Origin: a virus
Strand: one strand, 5' to 3'
IMG/VR virus record: IMGVR_UViG_3300027791_001639
Span: 1 to 31,565 of that record
DNA length: 31,565 nucleotides
Below are positions 378 to 23,481 of the stretch, in pieces (the first letter of the stretch is position 1; the number at the start of each line of letters is the position of its first letter). Under the pieces are notes generated by a model that did not search any database, was not told the origin of the DNA, and saw only the letters and a program-made list of their open reading frames with translations. The position numbers and the translations under genes were made by a program.

Positions 378-2429
378 ATGACGAAGTATATCACACATTG
401 GGCCGTGGTTTTTATTACGGCTTTTATCATGATAGGTTTACACTACGGTGATGGTTCCCTGGTGCAAACAGCTCGCCTTAAGCAATTCGACTTACTTCAG
501 CAAACTGATAAGGCAACATTATCCCAAGATGTTGGCATCGTAACCATTGACGAAGCCGCCATTGAAAAGTACGGTCAGTGGCCTTGGAAGCGTGATATAA
601 TTGCAGATATAATCTGGAAACTTCGCGAAGCAGGTGCTGGTATCATCGTAATCCCTGTTATCATGTCAGAAACAGATAGATTAGGTGGTGATATTGAATT
701 AGCCAAAGCACTTGCGGGTAACGGTGTTGTAATAGCACAAGTAGGAAGTACCCAAGCCAATCGTAATGCGGTCCCAAGAGGCATTGCGAAAATTGGCGAG
801 CCTGTGCCATATATGTTTGAATGGCCAGGTATGTTAGGACCAATCCAATTGCTAGGAGATAATGCCGACGGTGTGGGCGTGTTGAACACGAATCCAGAAA
901 TCGACGGTGTAGTAAGACGAGTACCTCTCCTGATGCGTGTCGGCGAAGATACGTATCCCGCTTTAGCAATTGAAGTTATTCGTGTTGCAACAGGAAACCC
1001 TAGTTACCAAGTTAAGGAAGCTGGCGGTGGAATTGAAGCAGTACGAGTTCCTGGTTACCCAATTATAAAAACAGATCCTAATGCACAGATATGGTTACGT
1101 TGGAATAAAGAATTCGAAACTATTAGTGCGGCTTCAGATGATTATAGATTATTTGAAGGTAAGACTGTTATTATAGGAGTAACCGCAGAAGGCATAGGTG
1201 GTTTAATCGCTAGTCCGACTGGACCACAACACAACTATATACCAGCCGCAGTAACACTTCAAACTGTGATAGATGGCGATCAAATCGAGCGTCCCTATTG
1301 GGCATTCTTAGCAGAGCTTATCACAACCGGACTACTAGGCATAGCTTTAGTGTGCGTTGGAAGGTTTGCCCCTTACTGGTTAGCTGGAGGATTATTAGTT
1401 GTGTTTGTGGGAGGACTCACTTATGGCGTACACTATGCATGGGTAAACTATTTGTACTTGTTAGATGGTACAATGCCTATGGTAACAATATTTGTAGTAG
1501 GCTTACATGCAATTTTTAATAGATTTGTAAGTGAGTATACACAGAAACAAGCAATTAAGAAACAGTTTGGGGGCTATGCTAGTCCTACTGTAGTTAAACT
1601 GTTACAAGAGAATCCAGCACTTATCAAAGACGGTCAGAAGAAAGAAGTCTCAATTGTATTCTCAGACTTGCGTGGCTTTACTCCTTTGGGCGAAAGCTTC
1701 GGTGATGACGTTAAAGGATTGACTAAGATTATGAATGGGTATATGGACAGCATTACGCAACCTGTACTCGACAGTGACGGAATGATTATTAAATACATTG
1801 GGGACGCAAGTATGCACATACACAATGCACCCATAGACGATGTAAATCACGCTAAGACAGCAGTACAGTGCGGCTTAGACATGCTTAAAGCAGTGGAGAA
1901 GTTCAATGACGAAGTTATTAAACCAGAAGGAAGACCACCAGTTGGAATGGGGGCAGGAATCAATACCGGCCTTGGCTATATTGGAGAAATGGGTAGCACC
2001 GCAAGACATTCGTACGATGTACTCGGGGACGCCGTTAGTACAGCCGCAAGAATTGAAAGCAAGTGTAAAGAATACGGTTGCGTCCTCTTAGTAGGAGGAG
2101 CTACAGTTGAACAATGTAAAGATGACTTTATGTTCCTTAAAGTAGACGACTTAGCTGTTAAAGGTAAAACAGTTGGTGTTGCTATATACACAGTATTAGA
2201 TGATGTTAAGAAGCATTACGAAGCAAGCAAACGCAGACACGATGGAATGCATACACTATATCAGCAACAGAAGTTTAGTGAAGCAATTAAAGAGTGCGAT
2301 AAGTTAAAGCCGCAGTTTGAAGGCAAACTAGAAGGCTATTACGACATGTGGATTGAACGCTGTGAGTATATGCTAACACAAGACTTGCCTAAGGATTGGA
2401 ATGGCGTGTTTATTGCGACTTCGAAGTAG
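378..2429 (+). CDS. CHASE2-domain class III nucleotidyl (adenylate) cyclase
   Basis: This 683-aa membrane signalling protein should turn ATP into cAMP in response to an extracytoplasmic signal. Residues 7-24 form a membrane segment, about 30-300 a CHASE2 sensor (GQWPWKRD and the VFxGxxA-type strand VIIGVTAEG), about 308-380 three membrane segments, 420-605 the class III catalytic domain, and the rest a helical tail. Metal-binding Asp430 (FSDLRGFT) and Asp476 (IGD), adenine-selecting Lys473 and Asp547, and Arg558 are present. The transition-state Asn of the usual VNxAAR motif is Ser554 (VSTAAR). The start codon abuts a late promoter box, suggesting leaderless translation. The 3' end overlaps the convergent gene by 20 nt. 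A phage-borne CHASE2 cyclase is unusual; activity with Ser554 is uncertain. Confidence 0.88.
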   Translation: MTKYITHWAVVFITAFIMIGLHYGDGSLVQTARLKQFDLLQQTDKATLSQDVGIVTIDEAAIEKYGQWPWKRDIIADIIWKLREAGAGIIVIPVIMSETDRLGGDIELAKALAGNGVVIAQVGSTQANRNAVPRGIAKIGEPVPYMFEWPGMLGPIQLLGDNADGVGVLNTNPEIDGVVRRVPLLMRVGEDTYPALAIEVIRVATGNPSYQVKEAGGGIEAVRVPGYPIIKTDPNAQIWLRWNKEFETISAASDDYRLFEGKTVIIGVTAEGIGGLIASPTGPQHNYIPAAVTLQTVIDGDQIERPYWAFLAELITTGLLGIALVCVGRFAPYWLAGGLLVVFVGGLTYGVHYAWVNYLYLLDGTMPMVTIFVVGLHAIFNRFVSEYTQKQAIKKQFGGYASPTVVKLLQENPALIKDGQKKEVSIVFSDLRGFTPLGESFGDDVKGLTKIMNGYMDSITQPVLDSDGMIIKYIGDASMHIHNAPIDDVNHAKTAVQCGLDMLKAVEKFNDEVIKPEGRPPVGMGAGINTGLGYIGEMGSTARHSYDVLGDAVSTAARIESKCKEYGCVLLVGGATVEQCKDDFMFLKVDDLAVKGKTVGVAIYTVLDDVKKHYEASKRRHDGMHTLYQQQKFSEAIKECDKLKPQFEGKLEGYYDMWIERCEYMLTQDLPKDWNGVFIATSK

Positions 2430-2586
2430 CTTTAGCTTTTAGGTATTCTTCAATCTTATCACACACATTTTCATGATCATACATAGCTTCAGCGGTATAC
2501 TGTTTACCGCAAGCTAGACATTCGTATATATCATCTGCTTTGATTATACGTGCTTCGCCAGCAGGCTGAAAACTATCCGTGTTCAT
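2410..2586 (-). CDS. small C2HC zinc-finger-like protein
   Basis: This 58-aa protein has the motif IYECLACGKQYTAEAMYDHENVC, i.e. C-x2-C-x10-H-x4-C spacing typical of a single zinc site. It is a clear paralogue of the 53-aa protein at 12435-12596: both read IYECLAC-K-YT-EAMY-HE-VC-KI--YL. The ATG at 2586 was chosen because the conserved part begins just after it and because the upstream part of the frame (from a GTG at 2694) overlaps a far more protein-like cysteine-rich frame. It is the last gene of a minus-strand operon and overlaps the end of the cyclase gene. Function unknown; nucleic-acid or protein binding is plausible. Confidence 0.75.
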   Translation of the reverse strand: MNTDSFQPAGEARIIKADDIYECLACGKQYTAEAMYDHENVCDKIEEYLKAKATSKSQ

Positions 2587-2722
2587 ACCTTGAAGCTGAC
2601 TTTGGAACATCTCTACAGTCTTTGCAGTTGCATTTAAAACAGACGTCATTTGCACACTCTTCGCAGTCTTCGTCTCTATGGCACTTATGTCCACATGTAC
2701 TACATTGGCTGTCGTCGATCAA
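2573..2722 (-). CDS. cysteine-rich 49-residue mini-protein (candidate)
   Basis: This frame holds nine cysteines in 49 residues (CSTCGHKC, CEEC, CFKCNCKDC) plus two histidines among charged residues, the signature of a metal-binding mini-protein. It has no ATG. The best start is a TTG at 2722 that overlaps the TGA of the upstream gene (TTGA), suggesting coupled translation. It overlaps the next gene's start by 14 nt, as is usual for packed phage operons. The cysteine content would be hard to get by chance and the alternative frame is low-complexity. Start and expression are uncertain. Confidence 0.55.
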   Translation of the reverse strand: MIDDSQCSTCGHKCHRDEDCEECANDVCFKCNCKDCRDVPKSASRYEHG

Positions 2723-5860: not shown

Positions 5861-6424
5861 ATGCCTAAATACGATAGTTGGAACAGCTCAGATGCAGTAG
5901 ATAGATCGTTACTTGATAACGACATACACTATCTAAGCGGAGAGATTACTAACGAAAATATAGGTGAAGCCATTAAATGGATTATTAGTGCTAACCTAAT
6001 AAAAAAACCTAAACGAACACTTGAACTTTATGTTAATACTACAGGCGGGGATCTATACGAGATGTTTGCCCTTATTGATGTTATGAAGAATAGTTACCAC
6101 AACATAAGCACAGTAGGTATTGGTGCTGTTATGAGTGCAGGGTTTATGATCTTTGCAAGTGGCACAAAAGGATATCGTTGGATTGGTAAGAACGCCGGCA
6201 TCATGAATCATCAACACAGTGATAACATGGACGCTAAGATGCATGATATGAAAGCACAGATGAAAGAAAACAAAAACTGTGAAATGAGATGTATGCAAAT
6301 ACTACGTGAAGCAACAGGTATGACTGTACCAGAAGTTAATACTAAATTTATTAAGAACCCTTCCGATCAATACTACACAGCCAAACAATTGGTTGATTTA
6401 GGTATAGCAGACGACATTTTATAG
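5861..6424 (+). CDS. divergent ClpP-type serine peptidase
   Basis: This 187-aa protein has the ClpP/crotonase fold with an intact triad: Ser92 (AVMSAGF), His117 (IMNHQH) and Asp169 (PSDQYYTA). The oxyanion turn is NTTGGD rather than the canonical NSPGG, and the handle helix is lysine- and methionine-rich. It is clearly different from the canonical ClpP encoded 1.2 kb downstream. It could form its own barrel, a mixed barrel with the second subunit, or a prohead-type protease. The start is ATG 5861 with almost no leader. Confidence 0.85.
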   Translation: MPKYDSWNSSDAVDRSLLDNDIHYLSGEITNENIGEAIKWIISANLIKKPKRTLELYVNTTGGDLYEMFALIDVMKNSYHNISTVGIGAVMSAGFMIFASGTKGYRWIGKNAGIMNHQHSDNMDAKMHDMKAQMKENKNCEMRCMQILREATGMTVPEVNTKFIKNPSDQYYTAKQLVDLGIADDIL

Positions 6425-7441: not shown

Positions 7442-7644
7442 TGAGCAAGCAACCAGATGGACCATTTGTAAGTGCGTTTGAAAACGATACCACAGGTGTA
7501 GTGAAACAAGAACTTATTACATATCGTGTTAAAGATGGTATGTTACGTAAGGAAGTAACAACAAGACAATTTTCATCAGGCGGTGACTACCATGATAGTC
7601 AAAGTATTTCTCCGCTAGTAAGACAGGAGAAAATGGATGCCTAA
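7441..7644 (+). CDS. 67-aa hypothetical protein
   Basis: This polar protein ([23 protein letters not shown] at the start, [14 protein letters not shown] near the end) begins with an ATG that shares a base with the preceding TAA. It overlaps the clpP start by 8 nt, so translation is probably coupled. Function unknown. Confidence 0.65.
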
Positions 7645-8227
7645 TCTAGTACCAGTAGTTATTGAAAAGGAATCAAGAGGCGAACGTAGTTACGACATTT
7701 ATAGTAGACTACTAAAGGATAGAATTATTATGCTTGATACTGATGTTAATTCAGTTTCATGTAGTTTAGTTGTATCACAGTTATTATTCTTAGAATCACA
7801 ATCACCAGGTAAGCCTATTAGTTTTTATATTAATAGCCCGGGTGGTGTTATTAGTGACGGACTAAGTGTTTATGATACAATGCAATTTATTAAGTCACCT
7901 GTACATACTATTGTAATGGGACAAGCATGTTCAATGGGTTCGTTCTTAGCACAAGCAGGCGAAGCAGGACATCGAATGATGTTGCCACATGCAAGACACA
8001 TGATACATCAGCCAAGTGGCGGTGCTCGTGGTATGGCAAGTGATATTGAAATTTCGTACAACGAAATTATGCATTATAAAAAAATGTTAACTGAACTTTA
8101 TGTTAAGCATAACAGTAAAGGTAAAACGTTTGATGACTTTACTAAAGACATGGATAGAGATACTTTTATGTCTGCACAAGAAGCTCTTGATTATGGGCTA
8201 ATTGATAAAATTGTAGAAAAAGTATAA
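7637..8227 (+). CDS. clpP: ATP-dependent Clp protease proteolytic subunit
   Basis: This 196-aa protein is a canonical ClpP, the chambered serine protease that degrades unfolded substrates fed by a Clp ATPase. It has YINSPGG (65-70), nucleophile Ser99 (QACSMGSF), His124 (MIHQPSGG) and Asp175 ([18 protein letters not shown]). No ClpA/X ATPase or lon is encoded in the window, so it would have to pair with a host unfoldase. The start ATG 7637 follows AGGAG. It is the second ClpP-type gene within 2.4 kb; the first is much more diverged. Confidence 0.95.
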
Positions 8228-9392: not shown

Positions 9393-9690
9393 AGACGTAT
9401 TTGAAGACATTCCAGGTGACCCTGATAACGTTAATGTAAACTTTCCTCCTGATGTATTAGAACAAGCAGGATGGAGTGTTGGTGACACTATTGAAGTTAC
9501 AGCAAGTAATGGCATTCTTAACTTTAAGAAATCAGGAACTCAAAAAGATTTCTCAGGAAATCTTGTTCGAATAAATATCTTGCAATCGGAAATTGAATAT
9601 GCAAAGAGTCAACTGCAAGAACATGACACTGGACATATTCATACTGCAATTAGTTGGTTAGAACACAGAATAGAAGAGTTAAACAAATAG
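9355..9690 (+). CDS. AbrB/MazE-like DNA-binding domain protein
   Basis: This 111-aa protein has an N-terminal swapped-hairpin AbrB/SpoVT pattern (VNFPPDVLEQAGWSVGDTIEVTASNGILNFKK, about 28-60) and a C-terminal helical region (about 70-111) likely to dimerise. Such proteins bind DNA as transition-state regulators or antitoxins; no toxin gene is adjacent. ATG 9355 was chosen as the first start with a continuous conserved region; an upstream in-frame ATG at 9328 gives a longer form. The stop overlaps the first base of the tRNA-Ser gene. Confidence 0.7.
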   Translation: MTELLKSKTFKYEDVFEDIPGDPDNVNVNFPPDVLEQAGWSVGDTIEVTASNGILNFKKSGTQKDFSGNLVRINILQSEIEYAKSQLQEHDTGHIHTAISWLEHRIEELNK

Positions 9691-9779
9691 GAAGATTGCC
9701 TGAGTGGTTTAAAGGAGCGGTTTACTAAACCGTCGTAGGGGTAACTCTACCGTGGGTTCGAATCCTACATCTTCCGCCA
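9690..9779 (+). tRNA. tRNA-Ser with anticodon ACT
   Basis: This type II tRNA has a GGAAGAT/ATCTTCC acceptor stem, long variable arm (CGTAGGGGTAACTCTACC region), T arm and encoded GCCA end. The anticodon stem GCGGT/ACCGT leaves the 7-nt loop TTACTAA, so the anticodon is ACT. Serine tRNAs for AGY codons normally carry GCT, as in the second copy at 12347-12434. A at position 34 is highly unusual here. Confidence 0.85.
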
Positions 9780-9782
9780 TAC

Positions 9783-9858
9783 GCCGGCATAGCTCAGTTG
9801 GTAGAGCAATGGTTTTGTAAACCATAGGTCCCGAGTTCGAATCTTGGTGCCGGCACCA
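9783..9858 (+). tRNA. tRNA-Thr (TGT)
   Basis: Acceptor stem GCCGGCA/TGCCGGC, D arm AGCTCAGTTGGTAGAGC, anticodon stem ATGGT/ACCAT with loop TTTGTAA (anticodon TGT), T arm CCGAGTTCGAATCTTGG, discriminator A and encoded CCA. It lies 3 nt after tRNA-Ser. Confidence 0.95.
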
Positions 9859-9862
9859 ATTA

Positions 9863-9869
9863 ATAAATA
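9863..9869 (+). promoter_or_regulatory. late-type promoter box (ATAAATA) for nfu
   Basis: ATAAATA sits between tRNA-Thr and the nfu-like gene. Predicted transcription start at 9874-9875 coincides with the ATG. It is identical through ATAAATACAGTATG to the box before the cyclase gene at 367-380. Confidence 0.6.
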
Positions 9870-9873
9870 CAGT

Positions 9874-10155
9874 ATGGAAGATCGTACAAAAGAAGAAATA
9901 GTAAAAAACATAGATCATGTTATAAATCAATATGTACAGCCAGCAGTTGAACAACACGGTGGCTATATCAAACTAGAAGATTTTGACATGGAGTCAGGTA
10001 GAGTTTCAGTTTTACTCCAAGGTAGTTGTAGTGGTTGTGCTAGTAGTAGTATAACACTAAAACTAGGTGTAGAAAATATGCTTAAACACTATGTACCCGA
10101 AGTAAATTCCGTTGAAGGTATGGATGATCCAAATTTTAATAACCCCTACTACTAA
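9874..10155 (+). CDS. NifU C-terminal domain (Nfu) Fe-S carrier
   Basis: This 93-aa protein is a stand-alone Nfu domain, which holds and delivers [4Fe-4S] clusters. It shows the helix VQPAVEQHGGYIKLEDF, the cluster-binding CSGC (Cys52, Cys55 in QGSCSGCASSSITLK) and the family's VPEV--VEGM ending. The ATG at 9874 directly follows a late promoter box, so it is probably translated from a leaderless message. It is the first of three Fe-S assembly genes within 2 kb (with iscU and iscA). Confidence 0.92.
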   Translation: MEDRTKEEIVKNIDHVINQYVQPAVEQHGGYIKLEDFDMESGRVSVLLQGSCSGCASSSITLKLGVENMLKHYVPEVNSVEGMDDPNFNNPYY

Positions 10156-11114: not shown

Positions 11115-11486
11115 ATGGCATATTCAGATAAGGTGATGGACCATTACGAAAATCCTCGTAATGTTGGCAAGTGGGATTCTGGTGAAGAAGGCATTGGAAC
11201 AGGGATGGTAGGAGCACCAGCATGTGGCGATGTTATGCGATTACAAATTAAAGTAAAAGATAACATAATTACTGATGCTAAGTTTAAAACATACGGATGT
11301 GGTAGTGCTATTGCAAGCAGTAGCCTACTTACTGAATGGGTTAAAGGAATGACATTAGAAGGCGCAGGCGAAATAAAGAACACAGACCTTGCAACCGAAC
11401 TTGCTCTACCTCCTGTGAAGATACACTGTTCAGTACTAGCAGAAGATGCTATCAAAGCCGCTATTGCAGATTATAAATCTAGGTGA
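11115..11486 (+). CDS. iscU: Fe-S cluster assembly scaffold IscU
   Basis: This 123-aa protein is a full-length IscU, the scaffold on which [2Fe-2S] clusters are built. All cluster ligands are visible: Cys37 (GAPACGDV), Asp39, Cys62 ([12 protein letters not shown]), His104 and Cys105 ([11 protein letters not shown]). The LPPVK motif (98-102) recognised by the HscA chaperone is intact, implying that it can use the host chaperone system. No cysteine desulfurase is present in the window, so sulfur must come from the host. It overlaps the iscA start by 4 nt (GTGA), indicating coupled production of scaffold and carrier. Confidence 0.95.
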
Positions 11487-11809
11487 TAACAATTACTGAG
11501 GTTGGTGCAAAACGTGTAACTGGCTTTTTAGAAAATCGAGGTAAAGGTCTAGGACTTAGAGTTAAGATAAGAACTACTGGGTGCTCGGGATATGCGTATG
11601 TGTTAGAGTTTGTTGACGATGTTAATGACGATGACACTGTGTTTAATTCTAATGGTATAAAGATTATCGTTGATAACAAGTCGCTAGTAATGATAGATGG
11701 GACTCATCTAGATTATGTCAAAGAAGGACTTAACGAAGGGTTTCAGTTTAAAAATCCTTGGGAAGACGCAACTTGCGGCTGTGGCGAATCTTTTACTCTT
11801 AAGAAGTAA
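11483..11809 (+). CDS. iscA: A-type Fe-S carrier IscA/HesB
   Basis: This 108-aa protein has the three conserved cysteines of A-type carriers: Cys34 (TTGCSGYAY), Cys98 and Cys100 (ATCGCGESF). It accepts clusters from IscU and passes them to targets. The start is a GTG overlapping the iscU TGA; no better start exists. A second, diverged A-type carrier is encoded at 23119-23481. Confidence 0.95.
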
Positions 11810-12434: not shown

Positions 12435-12596
12435 CTATTCTGTTTCTTGTGTTTTAAGCCACTCGAGATAAGCTGGTATCTTAGGGCATACACCTTCGTG
12501 TACATACATAGCTTCTTCAGTATACATTTTGTTGCAAGCTAAACATTCATAAATTTCATCTTCATGAATAATGCTTTGCTTGCCAGCTTGTTCCAT
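12435..12596 (-). CDS. small C2HC zinc-finger-like protein (paralogue)
   Basis: This 53-aa protein contains IYECLACNKMYTEEAMYVHEGVC, the same C-x2-C-x10-H-x4-C pattern as the protein at 2410-2586, with about half its residues identical. The start was set at 12596, where the ATG overlaps the TAA of the upstream gene (TAATG). It is again the last gene of a minus-strand late operon after a membrane protein. Its stop lies directly against the CCA end of tRNA-Ser. Function unknown. Confidence 0.8.
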   Translation of the reverse strand: MEQAGKQSIIHEDEIYECLACNKMYTEEAMYVHEGVCPKIPAYLEWLKTQETE

Positions 12597-13042
12597 TATA
12601 TCAAACCTTTGGCTTTCGCAACCCAAAAGAATCCACCCGAGAGTGCTATTAGTAAAACAATACCAACACTCAATGCAATAGTCATTGTAGACTGGTTAGC
12701 TTTAGATTGTCTAGCGTTAGCGTTCTTTCGTTTGGTAGCTTGTAATTTTATGCCCTTGTTGTATTGCTCTCTAAATTTACAGAAGTCTATGTAGCCATGT
12801 AGTCTCTGCTTGTTGAGCATGAACTTTAATGATTCTTCATTTTTCCTTAGTTGTTCCTGAGCTTGAAATGCTTCCATGACATTTCCAGTGCCAGCTTTAA
12901 CTTGTTTGTTAATTGCTTTTTCAGCACCGAAGTACTTTGATATTGCCGCTCCAGCATCAGCAATCTCTTTACCGTTGTTTATAGTCGCCTTGATTACCTT
13001 AAAGGCGGCATTGGCTACTGCGAGTTCTGCTAACATATCCAT
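12596..13042 (-). CDS. 148-aa protein with C-terminal membrane anchor
   Basis: The N-terminal part (MDMLAELAVANAAFKVIKATINNGKEIADAG) is helical and hydrophobic, residues 40-118 are charged and helical, and a membrane segment lies at about 120-142 (MTIALSVGIVLLIALSGGFFWVA). The AELA-ANAAF-VIK-xI-NG-EI start is one I associate with T4-like marine phage proteins of unknown function. AAGGAG precedes the ATG, inside the upstream gene. A virion or lysis role is possible. Confidence 0.75.
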   Translation of the reverse strand: MDMLAELAVANAAFKVIKATINNGKEIADAGAAISKYFGAEKAINKQVKAGTGNVMEAFQAQEQLRKNEESLKFMLNKQRLHGYIDFCKFREQYNKGIKLQATKRKNANARQSKANQSTMTIALSVGIVLLIALSGGFFWVAKAKGLI

Positions 13043-13346: not shown

Positions 13347-14654
13347 ATGAGAACACAACCACAAGATATTATCGCAAAGTTAGAAGCAGACAATAGTAAG
13401 CTCGCTAAACAAGCAATCCTAAAAGAAGCAGTTGACGAAGGTGTTCCAGAGTTCTTTGAAGGCATTACAATGGCACTTGATCCGCTTGTAACATTTGGTG
13501 TTAAGAAAGTTCCAGAAGTAGACAGTGAATGGGACGGACAAGGACTAGATTGGAGTAACTTTAAGGTACTGGCTAATCAACTTATCAACCGTGAGCTTAC
13601 AGGCCATGCGGCACGTGATGCTATTGCACTTGCAATGAGTGTTGCTACTGCCGAACAGTGGAACGGCTTTTACAGACGCATTTTAATCAAAGACTTACGA
13701 TGCGGCATGAGCGAAAAGACTGTCAACAAAGTAGCACCTGGCACAGTGCCTGTGTTTACTTGTAGTCTTGCACACGACTCAGCTAACCACGAAAAGAAGA
13801 TGATAGGCAAAAAGCAAATTGAAGTTAAACTAGATGGTGTACGTGTACTAGCTGTATGTCGATCAGGCAAGGTAGAACTGTTTAGTCGTAACGGTAGACA
13901 ATTTCATAACTTTCCACACATTGTTGCAGAGATTGAATCAGTACTAGAACGTAAGCCTAGCCCATATGATTGTGTACTAGATGGCGAAGTAATGAGTAAA
14001 GACTTTCAAGATCTTATGAAGCAAGTACATAGAAAAGACGGCAAAGCTGCAACTGATAGTGTACTACACTTGTTTGACTTTATCCCACTAGCAGACTTCC
14101 TTAAAGGTAGTTGGGATAAGAAGCAGACGGACCGTAGTAACTATGTTAAGTACTGGGTACTAGAGAACGAAGACCTCTTAGAGCACGTTACAGCGTGTGA
14201 ATGGGAAGATGTTGACCTTAGTACTACAGAAGGCAATAAACGCTTTGTAGAGCTTAATAAGACGGCTGTAGACGGTGGTTATGAAGGTGTAATGATTAAA
14301 GACGTAGATGCACCATACGAATGCAAGCGTACACACGCCTGGTTAAAGGCAAAACCATTTATTGAAGTAACCTTGGAGGTTGTAGATGTTGAAGAAGGAA
14401 CAGGAAGAAATGAAGGACGACTCGGCGCTATTGTATGCGAGGGAGTTGACGATGGAAGAGCGGTCAAAGTTAACGTTGGTAGTGGTTTTAGTGATAGCAA
14501 CCGCGATAACTTTTGGACTCTTCGTAGCGATGTTATTGGGCAACTAGTAGAAGTACGTGCTGATGCTGTTACACAGAATCAAGACGGAACTTATAGTTTG
14601 CGTTTTCCACGCTTTAAAACATTCCGAGGCTTTGAAGCCGGCGAAAAAATTTAA
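13347..14654 (+). CDS. ATP-dependent DNA ligase (T4 gp30-like)
   Basis: This 435-aa enzyme seals nicks in DNA during phage replication and repair. The adenylated lysine is Lys161 in motif I (EVKLDGVR). The motif III glutamate is in CVLDGEVM, motif IV is GYEGVMIKD and motif V WLKAKPF, followed by an OB-fold domain ending RFPRFKTFRGFE. The helical N-terminal domain (1-140) resembles T4 ligase (487 aa), though the protein is a little shorter. It is expressed from an early-type promoter and followed by hemE after 14 nt. Confidence 0.95.
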   Translation: MRTQPQDIIAKLEADNSKLAKQAILKEAVDEGVPEFFEGITMALDPLVTFGVKKVPEVDSEWDGQGLDWSNFKVLANQLINRELTGHAARDAIALAMSVATAEQWNGFYRRILIKDLRCGMSEKTVNKVAPGTVPVFTCSLAHDSANHEKKMIGKKQIEVKLDGVRVLAVCRSGKVELFSRNGRQFHNFPHIVAEIESVLERKPSPYDCVLDGEVMSKDFQDLMKQVHRKDGKAATDSVLHLFDFIPLADFLKGSWDKKQTDRSNYVKYWVLENEDLLEHVTACEWEDVDLSTTEGNKRFVELNKTAVDGGYEGVMIKDVDAPYECKRTHAWLKAKPFIEVTLEVVDVEEGTGRNEGRLGAIVCEGVDDGRAVKVNVGSGFSDSNRDNFWTLRSDVIGQLVEVRADAVTQNQDGTYSLRFPRFKTFRGFEAGEKI

Positions 14655-14660
14655 TAAATA
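14654..14660 (+). promoter_or_regulatory. late-type promoter box (ATAAATA) for hemE
   Basis: AATAAATA overlaps the ligase stop. Predicted start is at about 14666 and the ATG is at 14669, so the leader would be about 3 nt, without a Shine-Dalgarno. Confidence 0.55.
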
Positions 14661-14668
14661 ATCTTAAT

Positions 14669-15649
14669 ATGAATGAACTTTTTAGAAACGCCCTCGAACG
14701 GGCAGAACAATCTTGTCCTCCGATTTGGATGATGAGACAAGCCGGCAGATATCAACCATCGTACATGGAAATGAAAGAACAGTTCACGTTTGAACAGATG
14801 TGTAAACTTCCGCAAGTCGCGGCAAAGGTTGCAATGCTACCAATTGATGAATTTGACTTTGATGTTGCTATTTTGTTTAGTGATATACTATACCACATAG
14901 AAGGATTAGGATTACCGTTAAAGTTTGACCCTGGTCCTAAGTTTGAATGGCATCTTACAGAAGAAAATTATAAAGATCACAGTGACATTGGTAAAGCGAT
15001 GAAACATCTTAGCTTTCAGCAATCAGCAATAAAAGCAACTAGAGAAGCATTGTCACCTAAGAAAAGTTTAGTAGGGTTTGTTGGCGGGCCTTGGACATTG
15101 CTAAACTACGCACTGGGTGAGAACAAAAATAAAGTTAGTGATGACTTTAAGTTTAAGTATCTTAAAGATGTAATTATACCATTGCTACAATCTAGTATAA
15201 GAAAACAAAAAGAAGCTGGCGCTGATGCTGTAATGGTATTTGATAGTGGACTTGCTAATATACACAAAAAATTCTTTGATGAAAAATATATACCTATGCT
15301 AAAATTAATAGCTGATATTGGAAACACCGCCTATTATGCTCGAACACTTCCTTACAACAGTTTGAATAAAGTTATTGACATTGGATTTGCAGGTGTTGGT
15401 ATTGACAGTACTGTTGATCTTAACAAAACTCTTAAAAAAGTAGAACACGGATTTGTACAAGGTAACTTTGATGAAACGTTATTACTACAAACTTCAGAAA
15501 CAATTTTGAAATACGAAATACAAAAATGGCTAGACACTATTGATGACCCACGAGGGTGGGTCTGTGGATTAGGTCATGGTATTATAAAAGAAACCCCCAC
15601 AAGAAATGTTAAACTGTTTGTTGATATGGTTCGCAAACATTTTTCTTGA
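14669..15649 (+). CDS. hemE: uroporphyrinogen decarboxylase
   Basis: This 326-aa enzyme should convert uroporphyrinogen III to coproporphyrinogen III, the committed step toward heme. Active-site features are intact: Arg23 and Arg27 (PIWMMRQAGRYQPSY), Asp72 (LFSDIL), the GFVGGPWTL loop, Tyr147 (LLNYALG), VFDSGLANI, and His303 near the C terminus (GLGHGI). The protein is about 25 residues shorter than the E. coli enzyme, mostly at the N terminus and loops. It lies between phage genes and no other heme gene is in the window, so it would reinforce a host pathway. The near-leaderless start follows a late box. A phage hemE is rarely, if ever, described. Confidence 0.93.
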   Translation: MNELFRNALERAEQSCPPIWMMRQAGRYQPSYMEMKEQFTFEQMCKLPQVAAKVAMLPIDEFDFDVAILFSDILYHIEGLGLPLKFDPGPKFEWHLTEENYKDHSDIGKAMKHLSFQQSAIKATREALSPKKSLVGFVGGPWTLLNYALGENKNKVSDDFKFKYLKDVIIPLLQSSIRKQKEAGADAVMVFDSGLANIHKKFFDEKYIPMLKLIADIGNTAYYARTLPYNSLNKVIDIGFAGVGIDSTVDLNKTLKKVEHGFVQGNFDETLLLQTSETILKYEIQKWLDTIDDPRGWVCGLGHGIIKETPTRNVKLFVDMVRKHFS

Positions 15650-15703: not shown

Positions 15704-17008
15704 ATGGCAACTGCAAAATCAATCGCAAAGAAGCCCAAGAAGAAAGTTGTACGAGGAGCGCCACGTATTAAGCGTGGTAATAAACTTACTGAACCTAGTT
15801 GGGAAGGTTGGGAAGAATGGACTGGTGAAGAATACCATAGAGCCAATCAAAATGCCCGTGCATGGTATTATGAAAATTATAAACCAGCAGATTTATATCC
15901 AGCTGTAGAGGCTTGGATGACACAGAATGGTTATACTAAAGAACAAGTACAGCAAGTAAAAGCCGCACCAACACATGCACTAAGCATTACAGGTGGAATT
16001 ACTGCTAAACTACTAATGAACGGCATGCCTGATTACAATGAAAAGCATGACGAGTTTTGGCAGAGCCTAGCAGGCACAATGGGTACAATGGCTCCTGCAA
16101 CAAATTTTCTTAAAAAGCGTGTTAATGAAGCAATAGACCAGGGTGCTTCTATAGTTACGCAGAAGAAACAAGAAGAAGTAGAAAAGGCTAATGTATATAC
16201 TCCTACTATACAAGAGCGAATTAGAGATCAAGCATACGAGCAATCAGGAGATATAGACGAATGGTTGGAAGGCTGGATAACAGACCCAAAGTCATTTGAC
16301 CCTAAAGGGTTTAACTTTAAGACACACTTTCAAAAGACAGGTGTATCACAAGCACATGCACGTAAATTAAAAACTTTTTATGTAGATGCCCTTACTGACT
16401 TCGACGATTTAGAACGTTACCCTACAGCAGGGCAACTCAACAAAATGAGTGAACGTGATGCAGATATGTGGGTACAACTTAAAGAAGGCTATACACATAT
16501 TAAAAAAGCTGATATAAAAAACTATAGAATTGCTATCAATGAGTTACTTACAGCAATAGACTTTGTTATTGAAAGTGCAAAAGCAACACGTAAGCCACGT
16601 AAAGCTAAAGTTTACAGTGCAGATAAAATAGTAGCAAAGTTGAAATATTTAAAAGTAGATGACAAATATAAACTTGCAAGTGTTAGTCCTACTGATGTTG
16701 TAGGAGCCAGCGAGCTTTGGGTGTTTAATACTAAGACACGTAAACTAGGCAAGTATGTTGCAAAGAACATTGATCCAAAAGGTATGGGTAGAGAAGGTAG
16801 CGGACTTAGTGTAAAAGGCACTACTATCATAGGATTTGATGAAAAACTAAGTATACAGAAAACACTACGTAAGCCAGATGAACAGTTAAAAGAATTTAAA
16901 TCAGCAGGTAAAGTAAAATTACGTACATTACTTGAGGACATAAAAACAACTGACACAAAACTTAATGGTAGATCTAACTTGGAAACAGTATTACTCAAGG
17001 TTATTTGA
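15704..17008 (+). CDS. 434-aa basic conserved phage protein
   Basis: The protein starts with a strongly basic tail (KKPKKKVVRGAPRIKRG), followed by a Trp-rich segment (WEGWEEWTGEEYHRANQNARAWYY). A middle helical region has many Lys/Arg/Glu, and the C-terminal third is probably beta-rich. No enzyme motif is visible. The basic, nucleoid-protein-like N terminus suggests DNA binding or DNA packaging in the virion, but this is inference. AGGAG precedes the ATG; an out-of-frame ATG at 15699 is ignored. Confidence 0.7.
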   Translation: MATAKSIAKKPKKKVVRGAPRIKRGNKLTEPSWEGWEEWTGEEYHRANQNARAWYYENYKPADLYPAVEAWMTQNGYTKEQVQQVKAAPTHALSITGGITAKLLMNGMPDYNEKHDEFWQSLAGTMGTMAPATNFLKKRVNEAIDQGASIVTQKKQEEVEKANVYTPTIQERIRDQAYEQSGDIDEWLEGWITDPKSFDPKGFNFKTHFQKTGVSQAHARKLKTFYVDALTDFDDLERYPTAGQLNKMSERDADMWVQLKEGYTHIKKADIKNYRIAINELLTAIDFVIESAKATRKPRKAKVYSADKIVAKLKYLKVDDKYKLASVSPTDVVGASELWVFNTKTRKLGKYVAKNIDPKGMGREGSGLSVKGTTIIGFDEKLSIQKTLRKPDEQLKEFKSAGKVKLRTLLEDIKTTDTKLNGRSNLETVLLKVI

Positions 17009-19882: not shown

Positions 19883-20693
19883 AATTGATAAGGAAATTTA
19901 TACTAAAGCTGAATGGCATCGTATCCGCGAGAAGCGTAGGCGTGAGAAAGAATCCAAGCAACTTTATATTCCTGAACAATCTGGAGAATATTTTGTATTA
20001 TGTTTAAAGCATGGTAAAAAGTATTCTTCGGAATATGTTAACCGTTTGAGTAGAATGGTAAAGAGACATACGACAGTAGATTATAAGTTTGCATGCATGA
20101 CCGATGATCCAACTGGATTAGATAAAGATATAATAGTTATACCAACACCTAGTGGATTGCCAGGATGGTGGAATAAGCCTTATATGTACAACAGAGACTT
20201 GCCTATTAAGGGAACCATACTTTATATGGATCTTGATGTTGTTATTGCAAATAACATAGATAGGCTATTTCAGTTTCAACCCGGATATTGGATTACAATT
20301 AGAGACTTTACTAGATGTATGCGTCCAGGATGGCAACAATATAATAGTAGTGTTGTTAGATTTGAAACTGGACAACTTGGACATCTATGGGATAGATTTA
20401 TTGAAAATCCGCAAGCGATACAAAAACAATATTTTGGAGACCAAGATTACTTATACCACGAGTCTGTCAAACAAGGTAAACAAGCAAGACTGTTTCCAGA
20501 TGAATGGATTATGAGTTGGAAGTGGGAAATAAGAAAGAACAGGCAGTTTGCAACTGGCGGAACAAAAGGCAATAGAAAACTTGCTGAGATTGAGAATGTT
20601 GTTCCTAGACCTGAAACTTGTATTGCTGTGTTCCACGGTGATCCTAATCCTGCAAACTGTGACGATCCTTGGGTAGTAGAGAACTGGGTATGA
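19875..20693 (+). CDS. GT-A-fold glycosyltransferase
   Basis: This 272-aa protein starts with a basic helical extension (KAEWHRIREKRRREKES) and continues with a GT-A core. The metal-binding DxD is DLD (119-121 in ILYMDLDVVIANNIDRLF) and the end has the conserved IAVFHGDPNP, which resembles GT8-like enzymes using nucleotide sugars. The acceptor is unknown; phage DNA, a virion protein or a host surface glycan are all possible. It overlaps the QueD-like gene upstream and the fpr gene downstream (ATGA), so it is part of one operon. Confidence 0.8.
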   Translation: MAKIDKEIYTKAEWHRIREKRRREKESKQLYIPEQSGEYFVLCLKHGKKYSSEYVNRLSRMVKRHTTVDYKFACMTDDPTGLDKDIIVIPTPSGLPGWWNKPYMYNRDLPIKGTILYMDLDVVIANNIDRLFQFQPGYWITIRDFTRCMRPGWQQYNSSVVRFETGQLGHLWDRFIENPQAIQKQYFGDQDYLYHESVKQGKQARLFPDEWIMSWKWEIRKNRQFATGGTKGNRKLAEIENVVPRPETCIAVFHGDPNPANCDDPWVVENWV

Positions 20694-21421
20694 ATTTAAA
20701 AGTAATTGAAGTAGAACACTATACAGAAACTTTGTTCCGTATACGTACAGAACGTCCTCGTACATTTAGATTTACAGCAGGTGAGTTTGTAATGATTGGG
20801 CTTGACAACTGGTCTGAAAAACTACAAAAGAACAAACCTATAATGAGAGCGTATAGTTTAACTAGTGGACCATACGACGAGTATTTAGAATTTTACAGTA
20901 TCAAAGTACAAGACGGCCCGCTTACAAGTAAACTACAGCACATTAAAGTAGGTGATGATATAATAGTAGGTGAAAAGCCTACAGGTACTCTTACACTTAA
21001 TAATTTAGCACTAGGCGGTAACTTATGGCTGTTAGCTACAGGCACTGGCATAGCACCGTTTATATCGCTTCTAAGAGACCCTACAACGTATGATCACTTT
21101 GATCAGATACATGTGTATTGGAGTGTACGAAAAGCTGAAGATTTAAAAGCATTTGACAGCTTCTTGCAAGAACAAGATATTAAGTACACAGCAATAGTTA
21201 CACAAGATCCAGAGTGGACAGGACATAATAAACGTATAACAACATTTATTGGAGCAGGACAAATTATACCTAATTTAGAACCTAAAGAACATAAGATTAT
21301 GATTTGTGGCAGTTTAGACTTTAACAAAGAAGTAGCTACAATGTTTGATGGTTGGGGATTTAAAGAAGGAACTAACAAAGAAGCAGGAACCTTTGTACAA
21401 GAGAAGGCATTTGTAGGTTGA
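20690..21421 (+). CDS. fpr: ferredoxin-NADP+ reductase
   Basis: This 243-aa flavoenzyme transfers electrons between NADPH and ferredoxin or flavodoxin. FAD-binding RAYSLTSGP (53-61) and GPLTSKLQ (76-83), nucleotide-binding ATGTGIAPF (116-124) and MICGSLDF are present, and the length matches bacterial Fpr (about 248). The C terminus is KAFVG rather than the EKYW type. ATG 20690 overlaps the glycosyltransferase stop. With the Fe-S genes it could keep ferredoxin-dependent reactions running during infection; no ferredoxin gene is in the window. Confidence 0.92.
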   Translation: MNLKVIEVEHYTETLFRIRTERPRTFRFTAGEFVMIGLDNWSEKLQKNKPIMRAYSLTSGPYDEYLEFYSIKVQDGPLTSKLQHIKVGDDIIVGEKPTGTLTLNNLALGGNLWLLATGTGIAPFISLLRDPTTYDHFDQIHVYWSVRKAEDLKAFDSFLQEQDIKYTAIVTQDPEWTGHNKRITTFIGAGQIIPNLEPKEHKIMICGSLDFNKEVATMFDGWGFKEGTNKEAGTFVQEKAFVG

Positions 21422-22960: not shown

Positions 22961-23117
22961 ATCATGGATTAATTCAAGACTTAAAGAGCGTACATCTTGG
23001 GATGGCGCAGCATTAGTTGCACTAGGAATTATGGTATTATTTTTAGCGCCTCTAGCTAAAATAGCTGCTGGCCTTGCTATTGTATACGGCGCCTGGACCA
23101 TTTGGAAAAAGGACTAA
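22953..23117 (+). CDS. 54-aa small membrane protein
   Basis: A basic start (MLKSWINSRLKERTSWDG) leads into two hydrophobic segments (AALVALGIMVLFLAPLAKI and AAGLAIVYGAWTIW) and ends KKD. GGAGA precedes the ATG at 22953. The pattern R-x-KERTS-DG and GAWT-x-KK fits small membrane proteins of T4-like marine phages. It ends 1 nt before the second A-type carrier. Confidence 0.65.
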   Translation: MLKSWINSRLKERTSWDGAALVALGIMVLFLAPLAKIAAGLAIVYGAWTIWKKD

Positions 23118-23118
23118 A

Positions 23119-23481
23119 ATGAATATTTGTACACTAACAGATACAGCAAAAGCACAAATTGATAGCATATGTCAAGAAAATAACAGTTATGCGGTTAGCC
23201 TTAACTTAAAGGGCGGAGGCTGTGCAGGCTTTGAATACGATTGGGAAACTGTAGCAACAGAGGCTGATGTAGTAGAAGGCGATGTAGTTATTGATTCTAA
23301 CACAGGTAAATTTGTAGTTGGTGCAACAGCAGTGATGTTCATGATAGGAACTGAAATAGATTATGTTAAAAATATAATGGGTGCAACTTTTGAAGTTAAT
23401 AACCCTAATGCACAATCAGCATGCGGCTGCGGAGTTAGTGTAAACTTTGATGTAGACAAACTATCAATGCCAGCAATTTAA
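23119..23481 (+). CDS. second A-type Fe-S carrier (HesB/ErpA-like)
   Basis: This 120-aa protein is a second A-type carrier with Cys35 (GGGCAGFEY), Cys102 and Cys104 (SACGCGVSV). It differs considerably from the IscA at 11483-11809 and resembles the HesB-like proteins reported in marine phages. The start ATG 23119 follows the preceding stop directly. Two carriers plus IscU and Nfu form a broad Fe-S delivery set. It overlaps the convergent zinc-ribbon gene by 4 nt. Confidence 0.9.
   Translation: MNICTLTDTAKAQIDSICQENNSYAVSLNLKGGGCAGFEYDWETVATEADVVEGDVVIDSNTGKFVVGATAVMFMIGTEIDYVKNIMGATFEVNNPNAQSACGCGVSVNFDVDKLSMPAI

What the first reader, a model, noticed from the sequence alone, without database searches (positions are those of the whole stretch)
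14669..15649. Catalytically intact uroporphyrinogen decarboxylase (HemE) inside a phage gene array
Known phage tetrapyrrole genes act late (heme oxygenase, bilin reductases). HemE acts upstream, at the step that commits uroporphyrinogen to heme. All active-site motifs remain (RQAGR, FSDIL, Tyr147, GLGHGI), and it has a late box overlapping the ligase stop. It may raise heme supply for respiration late in infection or divert uroporphyrinogen from the siroheme/B12 branch.
Basis: partly seen in the sequence, partly recalled or inferred. Interest (0 to 1): 0.82.

Follow-up and report, generated by a model that had tools for sequence, protein, structure and literature searches.

The report
Phage-borne heme-pathway enzyme (HemE)
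A marine virus of bacteria carries an intact copy of a central heme-making enzyme (uroporphyrinogen decarboxylase); it belongs to a single virus-specific family spread over at least 58 virus contigs, most of which pair it with one or two further heme-pathway genes, so it probably keeps heme production running in infected cells, in line with a few earlier reports.

Summary
Window 14669-15649(+) encodes a full-length 326-aa uroporphyrinogen decarboxylase with every catalytic residue and a confident URO-D fold, in a phage gene array. It is not a chimera: 58 IMG/VR contigs encode relatives (44-86% identity), catalytic residues are invariant, dN/dS is 0.05-0.16, and several close relatives repeat the order DNA ligase > hemE > unknown gene. 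Viral HemE forms one clade beside SAR11 HemE, so it was probably acquired once, long ago, from that lineage or a near relative. Viral hemC has a different ancestry, so the module looks assembled by selection. Best reading: an auxiliary metabolic gene sustaining flux towards protoporphyrin and heme. Siroheme/B12 diversion is unlikely. The claim that known phage tetrapyrrole genes act only late is wrong: phage 5-aminolevulinate synthase (2024) and a SAR11 myophage with porphobilinogen deaminase and coproporphyrinogen oxidase (2020) are published. New here: hemE itself (no report found in the literature searched), its breadth, and the mixed-ancestry module. Activity and host are unproven.

The parts
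14669..15649 (+). hemE: uroporphyrinogen decarboxylase, 326 aa
   Evidence: PF01208 1e-66; TIGR01464 212 bits; model closest to solved UROD; 58 viral relatives
14735..14749 (+). RQAGR, residues 23-27 (Arg23 and Arg27 align with human Arg37 and Arg41)
   Evidence: invariant in 59 of 59 viral copies; aligned with human UROD; human numbering from general knowledge
14876..14890 (+). FSDIL, residues 70-74; Asp72 = essential Asp86 of human UROD
   Evidence: invariant; aligned
15107..15109 (+). Tyr147 (human Tyr164)
   Evidence: invariant; aligned
15245..15247 (+). Ser193 (human Ser219)
   Evidence: invariant; aligned
15566..15583 (+). GLGHGI, residues 300-305; His303 = human His339
   Evidence: invariant in all 57 copies that cover it
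14653..14660 (+). T4-type late box AATAAATA overlapping the ligase stop; 8 nt from the start codon, no Shine-Dalgarno sequence seen
   Evidence: sequence; class enriched upstream of genes; similar boxes before hemE in most close relatives; promoter activity inferred
13347..14654 (+). ATP-dependent DNA ligase, upstream neighbour
   Evidence: PHROG 114 7.9e-96; ligase > hemE order in several related contigs
15704..17008 (+). 434-aa protein of unknown function, downstream neighbour
   Evidence: PHROG 11903 1.4e-45; homologues in Sinorhizobium phages phiM12/phiN3 and in PA5oct-like phages

Best explanation
This is a phage-borne auxiliary metabolic gene encoding a working uroporphyrinogen decarboxylase. 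Expressed late from the box at 14653-14660 (inferred), HemE would remove the carboxyl groups of the four acetate side chains of uroporphyrinogen III to give coproporphyrinogen III, and so hold up flux into protoporphyrin and heme when host enzymes decline (inferred from the established reaction of the family). Relatives add HemC and/or HemF, the enzymes two steps before and one step after, so the phage group as a whole strengthens the porphobilinogen-to-protoporphyrinogen stretch and leaves ring closure (HemD), HemB and ferrochelatase (HemH) to the host. The likely benefit is continued cytochrome and respiratory function, alongside iron-sulphur assembly genes in the same window. Shown: identity, intact active site, purifying selection, one viral clade beside SAR11, co-location with hemC/hemF in relatives. 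Inferred: activity, timing, benefit, host.
For: Identity and fold. Catalytic residues invariant. Close pairs show dN/dS 0.05-0.16. One viral clade (97/94), sister to SAR11 HemE (union 100/99). Among 398 Pseudomonadota genomes the SAR11 genome scores 347 bits and the next 196. hemC on 28 of 43 contigs, hemF on 16 (15 above cut-off), mostly next to hemE in varying orders. Viral HemC keeps the SxKD, SPRR, RGNI..R and cofactor-Cys positions. The SAR11 locus itself reads hemC-hemE-hemH-hemF. Iron-sulphur genes in the window.
Against: No activity, expression or metabolite data. The window lineage has hemE without hemC or hemF on the pieces available (31.5 kb here, 83.7 kb in G013), all fragments. 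TIGR01464 scores 212 bits, under the 303 cut-off, although SAR11, SAR86 and OCS116 chromosomal HemE also fail it (220-237 bits). Host unknown. Why HemD, HemB and HemH are absent is not explained.
Confidence: 0.68

Rival explanations
1. HemE pulls uroporphyrinogen III away from siroheme/B12 synthesis, starving the host of those cofactors.
For: HemE acts at the branch point by established biochemistry.
Against: Relatives pair hemE with hemF, which only serves the heme branch. No SUMT/CysG above cut-off in 27 SAR11 genomes (0 of 27; best 24 bits against 185); those genomes may be incomplete and the host is not proven to be SAR11.
Confidence: 0.06
2. The enzyme makes coproporphyrinogen or coproporphyrin as an end product (metal binding, signalling or light-driven damage), not heme. 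Viral HemC without HemD would favour isomer I.
For: No hemH, hemB or hemD on any of the 43 viral contigs searched; many contigs have only hemC and hemE, without hemF.
Against: hemF on 16 contigs points onward to protoporphyrinogen; the host can supply HemD and HemH; no export gene was seen. The HEM4 profile also missed HemD in SAR11 genomes, so its absence in viruses is weak evidence.
Confidence: 0.1
3. A URO-D-family protein with another activity, such as a cobamide-dependent methyltransferase of the MtaA/CmuA type.
For: Below the TIGR01464 cut-off; weak MtbA/MtaA matches.
Against: hemE profile 212 bits against 31 or less for methyltransferases; model closest to UROD, methyltransferases far behind (E 4e-14 against 8e-23); all UROD catalytic residues kept; sits beside hemC/hemF in relatives.
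Confidence: 0.03
4. Passenger gene: recently picked up, not selected.
For: The position of the hem genes varies between lineages.
Against: One deep clade over all contigs examined, dN/dS 0.05-0.16, invariant active site, repeated co-location with genes of the same pathway.
Confidence: 0.03
5. Assembly chimera or bacterial contamination.
For: None found; INPHARED holds no true phage match.
Against: Ligase-hemE-c10 order repeated in several independent contigs; gp23 and hemE on one contig; viral HemE clade separate from cellular ones.
Confidence: 0.01

Closest known systems
Bacterial HemE / URO-D family (PF01208, TIGR01464); nearest: SAR11 (Pelagibacterales) chromosomal HemE
   Same: Fold, catalytic residues, full length; 48-49% identical to SAR11 HemE; shares SAR11-like motifs such as RQAGRY[QH] and GFVGGPWTL
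   Different: Slightly shorter than SAR11 HemE (326 against 330 aa); separate viral clade; encoded by a phage
Pelagimyophage PMP-MAVG-4 heme genes (PMC7029224)
   Same: Marine T4-like phage with porphobilinogen deaminase and coproporphyrinogen oxidase, probably the same module
   Different: That paper's text names no HemE and reports one genome; here HemE is shown across 58 contigs
Phage 5-aminolevulinate synthase vAlaS and hemO/pcyA cassettes (PMC11480375)
   Same: Phage-encoded tetrapyrrole enzymes from aquatic metagenomes
   Different: First step of the pathway or heme breakdown; activity shown there; different genes
SAR11 chromosomal hemC-hemE-hemH-hemF locus
   Same: hemE and hemF of the same kind lie together
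   Different: Phages lack hemH; viral HemC is not of SAR11 type (SAR11 HemC 1e-21, among the weakest matches, against up to 6e-55 in other genomes)

Membership tests
Uroporphyrinogen decarboxylase (HemE) | Full-length URO-D domain above Pfam cut-off | tested here: met
   225.8 bits against 23.9, profile 3-346 of 346
Uroporphyrinogen decarboxylase (HemE) | Catalytic residues Arg37, Arg41, Asp86, Tyr164, Ser219, His339 (human numbering) | tested here: met
   R23, R27, D72, Y147, S193, H303; invariant in viral copies, aligned with solved enzymes
Uroporphyrinogen decarboxylase (HemE) | UROD barrel fold | tested here: met
   pLDDT 91; TM 0.84-0.89 to 24 UROD chains ranked ahead of all other proteins
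Uroporphyrinogen decarboxylase (HemE) | NCBIfam TIGR01464 equivalog cut-off (302.95 bits), an annotation threshold | tested here: inconclusive
   212.3 bits, below; but chromosomal HemE of SAR11, SAR86 and OCS116 also score only 220-237, so the cut-off leaves out this branch rather than the function
Uroporphyrinogen decarboxylase (HemE) | Decarboxylation of uroporphyrinogen III | not testable with these tools
   needs an enzyme assay
MtaA/CmuA methyltransferases | Scores above the family cut-offs | tested here: not met
   at most 31 bits against cut-offs of 235-600
Phage auxiliary metabolic gene for heme | Encoded in a viral genome, confirmed by synteny in independent contigs | tested here: met
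Phage auxiliary metabolic gene for heme | Maintained by purifying selection | tested here: met
   dN/dS 0.05-0.16
Phage auxiliary metabolic gene for heme | Expressed and raising heme in infected cells | not testable with these tools
   no transcripts or metabolite data
hemC/hemE/hemF phage module | hemC or hemF on the same contig | tested here: not met
   neither in the window (G000: 0 matches); met in most other branches; the window is a fragment, so absence from the genome is not shown

The most novel reading that the evidence does not exclude
A large group of marine T4-superfamily phages, perhaps including jumbo phages, carries a movable hemC/hemE/hemF module put together from different bacterial donors (hemE and probably hemF from a SAR11 relative, hemC from elsewhere), kept since an ancient acquisition to control the middle of the host's tetrapyrrole pathway.
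Probability: 0.5. Interest if true: 0.62.

Novelty: new member of a known kind. Interest (0 to 1): 0.5.

Why it matters
It shows that phages reach into the middle of heme synthesis, not only its first step or heme breakdown, and that they do so widely. If the enzymes are active, infection could change heme and iron use in marine bacteria, and the hemC/hemE/hemF set gives a testable case of a pathway segment assembled from several donors by selection in viruses.

Tried and rejected
Chimera or contamination: rejected by repeated synteny. A cultured phage with hemE: none; the INPHARED matches are 24-33% identical and in records that look bacterial, such as Salmonella assemblies; the same holds for hemF and hemC. 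Gp23 on the other contigs: only one of 42 has it. Ferrochelatase, HemB and HemD on viral contigs: none; the HemD test is weak because the profile also finds nothing in the SAR11 genomes included. The ~500-aa SAR11 HemC looks like a HemCD fusion, but Pfam does not confirm a HemD half, so this is not claimed. The genome scan for cellular relatives used motif patterns that favour SAR11-like sequences; checked by an even sample of 398 genomes. Literature search for phage hemE by name: none found, but the symbol hemE cannot be told from 'heme', and most subscription papers are not held.

Full report
What is there. Window 14669-15649(+) is one open reading frame of 326 aa. It matches Pfam URO-D over the full profile at 1e-66 and no PHROG family. 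NCBIfam hemE scores 212 bits, under the curated 303, but chromosomal HemE of SAR11, SAR86 and OCS116 score 220-237 and fail too. The AlphaFold model (mean pLDDT 91.4) is closest to solved uroporphyrinogen decarboxylases, with human UROD bound to coproporphyrinogen-III on top. R23, R27, D72, Y147, S193 and H303 align with the catalytic residues and do not vary among viral copies.

It is not an artefact. A scan of IMG/VR returned 58 loci with 44-86% identity, and a looser one confirmed 123 matching stretches. Several close relatives from other samples repeat the order DNA ligase > hemE > 430-aa protein > tail-fibre-like gene. One 19.9-kb contig carries hemE and a T4-type gp23 major capsid gene. 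That capsid protein is about 74% identical to those of Sinorhizobium phage Phosso (469 kb) and Vibrio phage 2.275.O (349 kb) and 68% to PA5oct (287 kb), so at least part of this group is related to jumbo T4-superfamily phages. The host is not known.

Origin. In a maximum-likelihood tree of 79 sequences all viral HemE form one group (97/94) beside SAR11 HemE; the union has 100/99 support. The scan behind the cellular set was motif-biased, so 398 Pseudomonadota genomes were sampled: the SAR11 genome scored 347 bits, the next 196, the rest 148 or less. A single ancient acquisition from SAR11 or a near relative is the simplest reading. Pairwise dN/dS of 0.05-0.16 shows purifying selection.

The wider module. 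Outside the window lineage, hemE usually sits next to hemC (porphobilinogen deaminase) and/or hemF (coproporphyrinogen III oxidase), in the orders hemC-hemE, hemE-hemC, hemE-hemF-hemC or hemF-hemC-hemE. Profile searches of 43 contigs found hemC on 28 and hemF on 16, one of them a weak fragment, and no hemB, hemH or hemD. In contig G006, a member of the window's HemE clade, hemC lies close to the DNA ligase and hemE some 33 kb away, so the genes move within these genomes. SAR11 chromosomes have hemC-hemE-hemH-hemF in a row (hemH read from its sequence, not profiled). Viral HemF groups beside SAR11 HemF, though long branches limit this. Viral HemC does not: its best cellular matches lie in other Pseudomonadota (up to 6e-55) and SAR11 is among the weakest (1e-21). 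Functionally linked genes of different ancestry lying side by side argue for selection on the pathway.

How it probably works. HemE converts uroporphyrinogen III to coproporphyrinogen III (established for the family). Late expression is suggested by the box AATAAATA at 14653-14660. ATAAATA lies within 45 nt upstream of 96 of 807 genes in twelve contigs of the group, against 22 on average in shuffles, with a sharp peak at 12 nt from the start codon, which suggests very short leaders. The window also holds IscU, IscA/SufA-type and NfuA-type iron-sulphur genes and a ferredoxin-NADP reductase-like gene, so support of iron cofactors in general is plausible. Raising heme supply for respiration is the best reading; it is not shown. 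Diversion from siroheme/B12 is unlikely, since hemF accompanies hemE in relatives and 27 SAR11 genomes show no uroporphyrinogen methyltransferase above cut-off, with the caution that the genomes may be incomplete and SAR11 is the donor lineage, not the proven host.

What is known. Phage 5-aminolevulinate synthase with heme oxygenase and bilin reductase genes is published (PMC11480375), as is a SAR11 myophage with coproporphyrinogen oxidase and porphobilinogen deaminase (PMC7029224). I found no report of phage HemE in the library searched, which lacks most subscription journals. No cultured phage in INPHARED has a true relative. I file it as a new member of a known kind: a phage heme auxiliary gene.

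Noticed in passing
window 9844-10155, 11115-11486, 11483-11809, 23074-23481: Four iron-sulphur assembly genes (NfuA C-terminal type, IscU, IscA type, SufA/ErpA type) in 31.5 kb, plus a ferredoxin-NADP reductase-like gene at 20669-21421.
   Followed up: partly
window 378-2429: CHASE2 sensor plus adenylate/guanylate cyclase domain in a phage; a PHROG of unknown function matches over its full length.
   Followed up: no
window 5861-6424 and 7637-8227: Two ClpP-type proteases; the second scores above the ClpP subfamily cut-off PRK00277.
   Followed up: no
window 2410-2694(-) and 12435-12626(-): Two related small proteins with a CxxC-type motif on the minus strand, similar to each other and to nothing else in the set; only weak zinc-finger-like matches.
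   Followed up: no
L004 4550-6193: 547-aa protein with a TonB-dependent receptor plug domain a few genes upstream of ligase-hemE, also in G001.
   Followed up: no
L157 16858-18006; L035 9184-10008; L019 1852-2913: Fatty acid desaturase beside hemE, DAHP synthase beside hemE, and a ring-hydroxylating oxygenase alpha subunit near hemE in relatives.
   Followed up: no
twelve contigs of the group, window included: ATAAATA boxes peak exactly 12 nt before start codons (16 of 96), hinting at very short leaders on late transcripts.
   Followed up: partly
window 9690-9779: Predicted tRNA-Ser with anticodon ACT, unusual for bacteria and their viruses; five tRNA genes in all.
   Followed up: no
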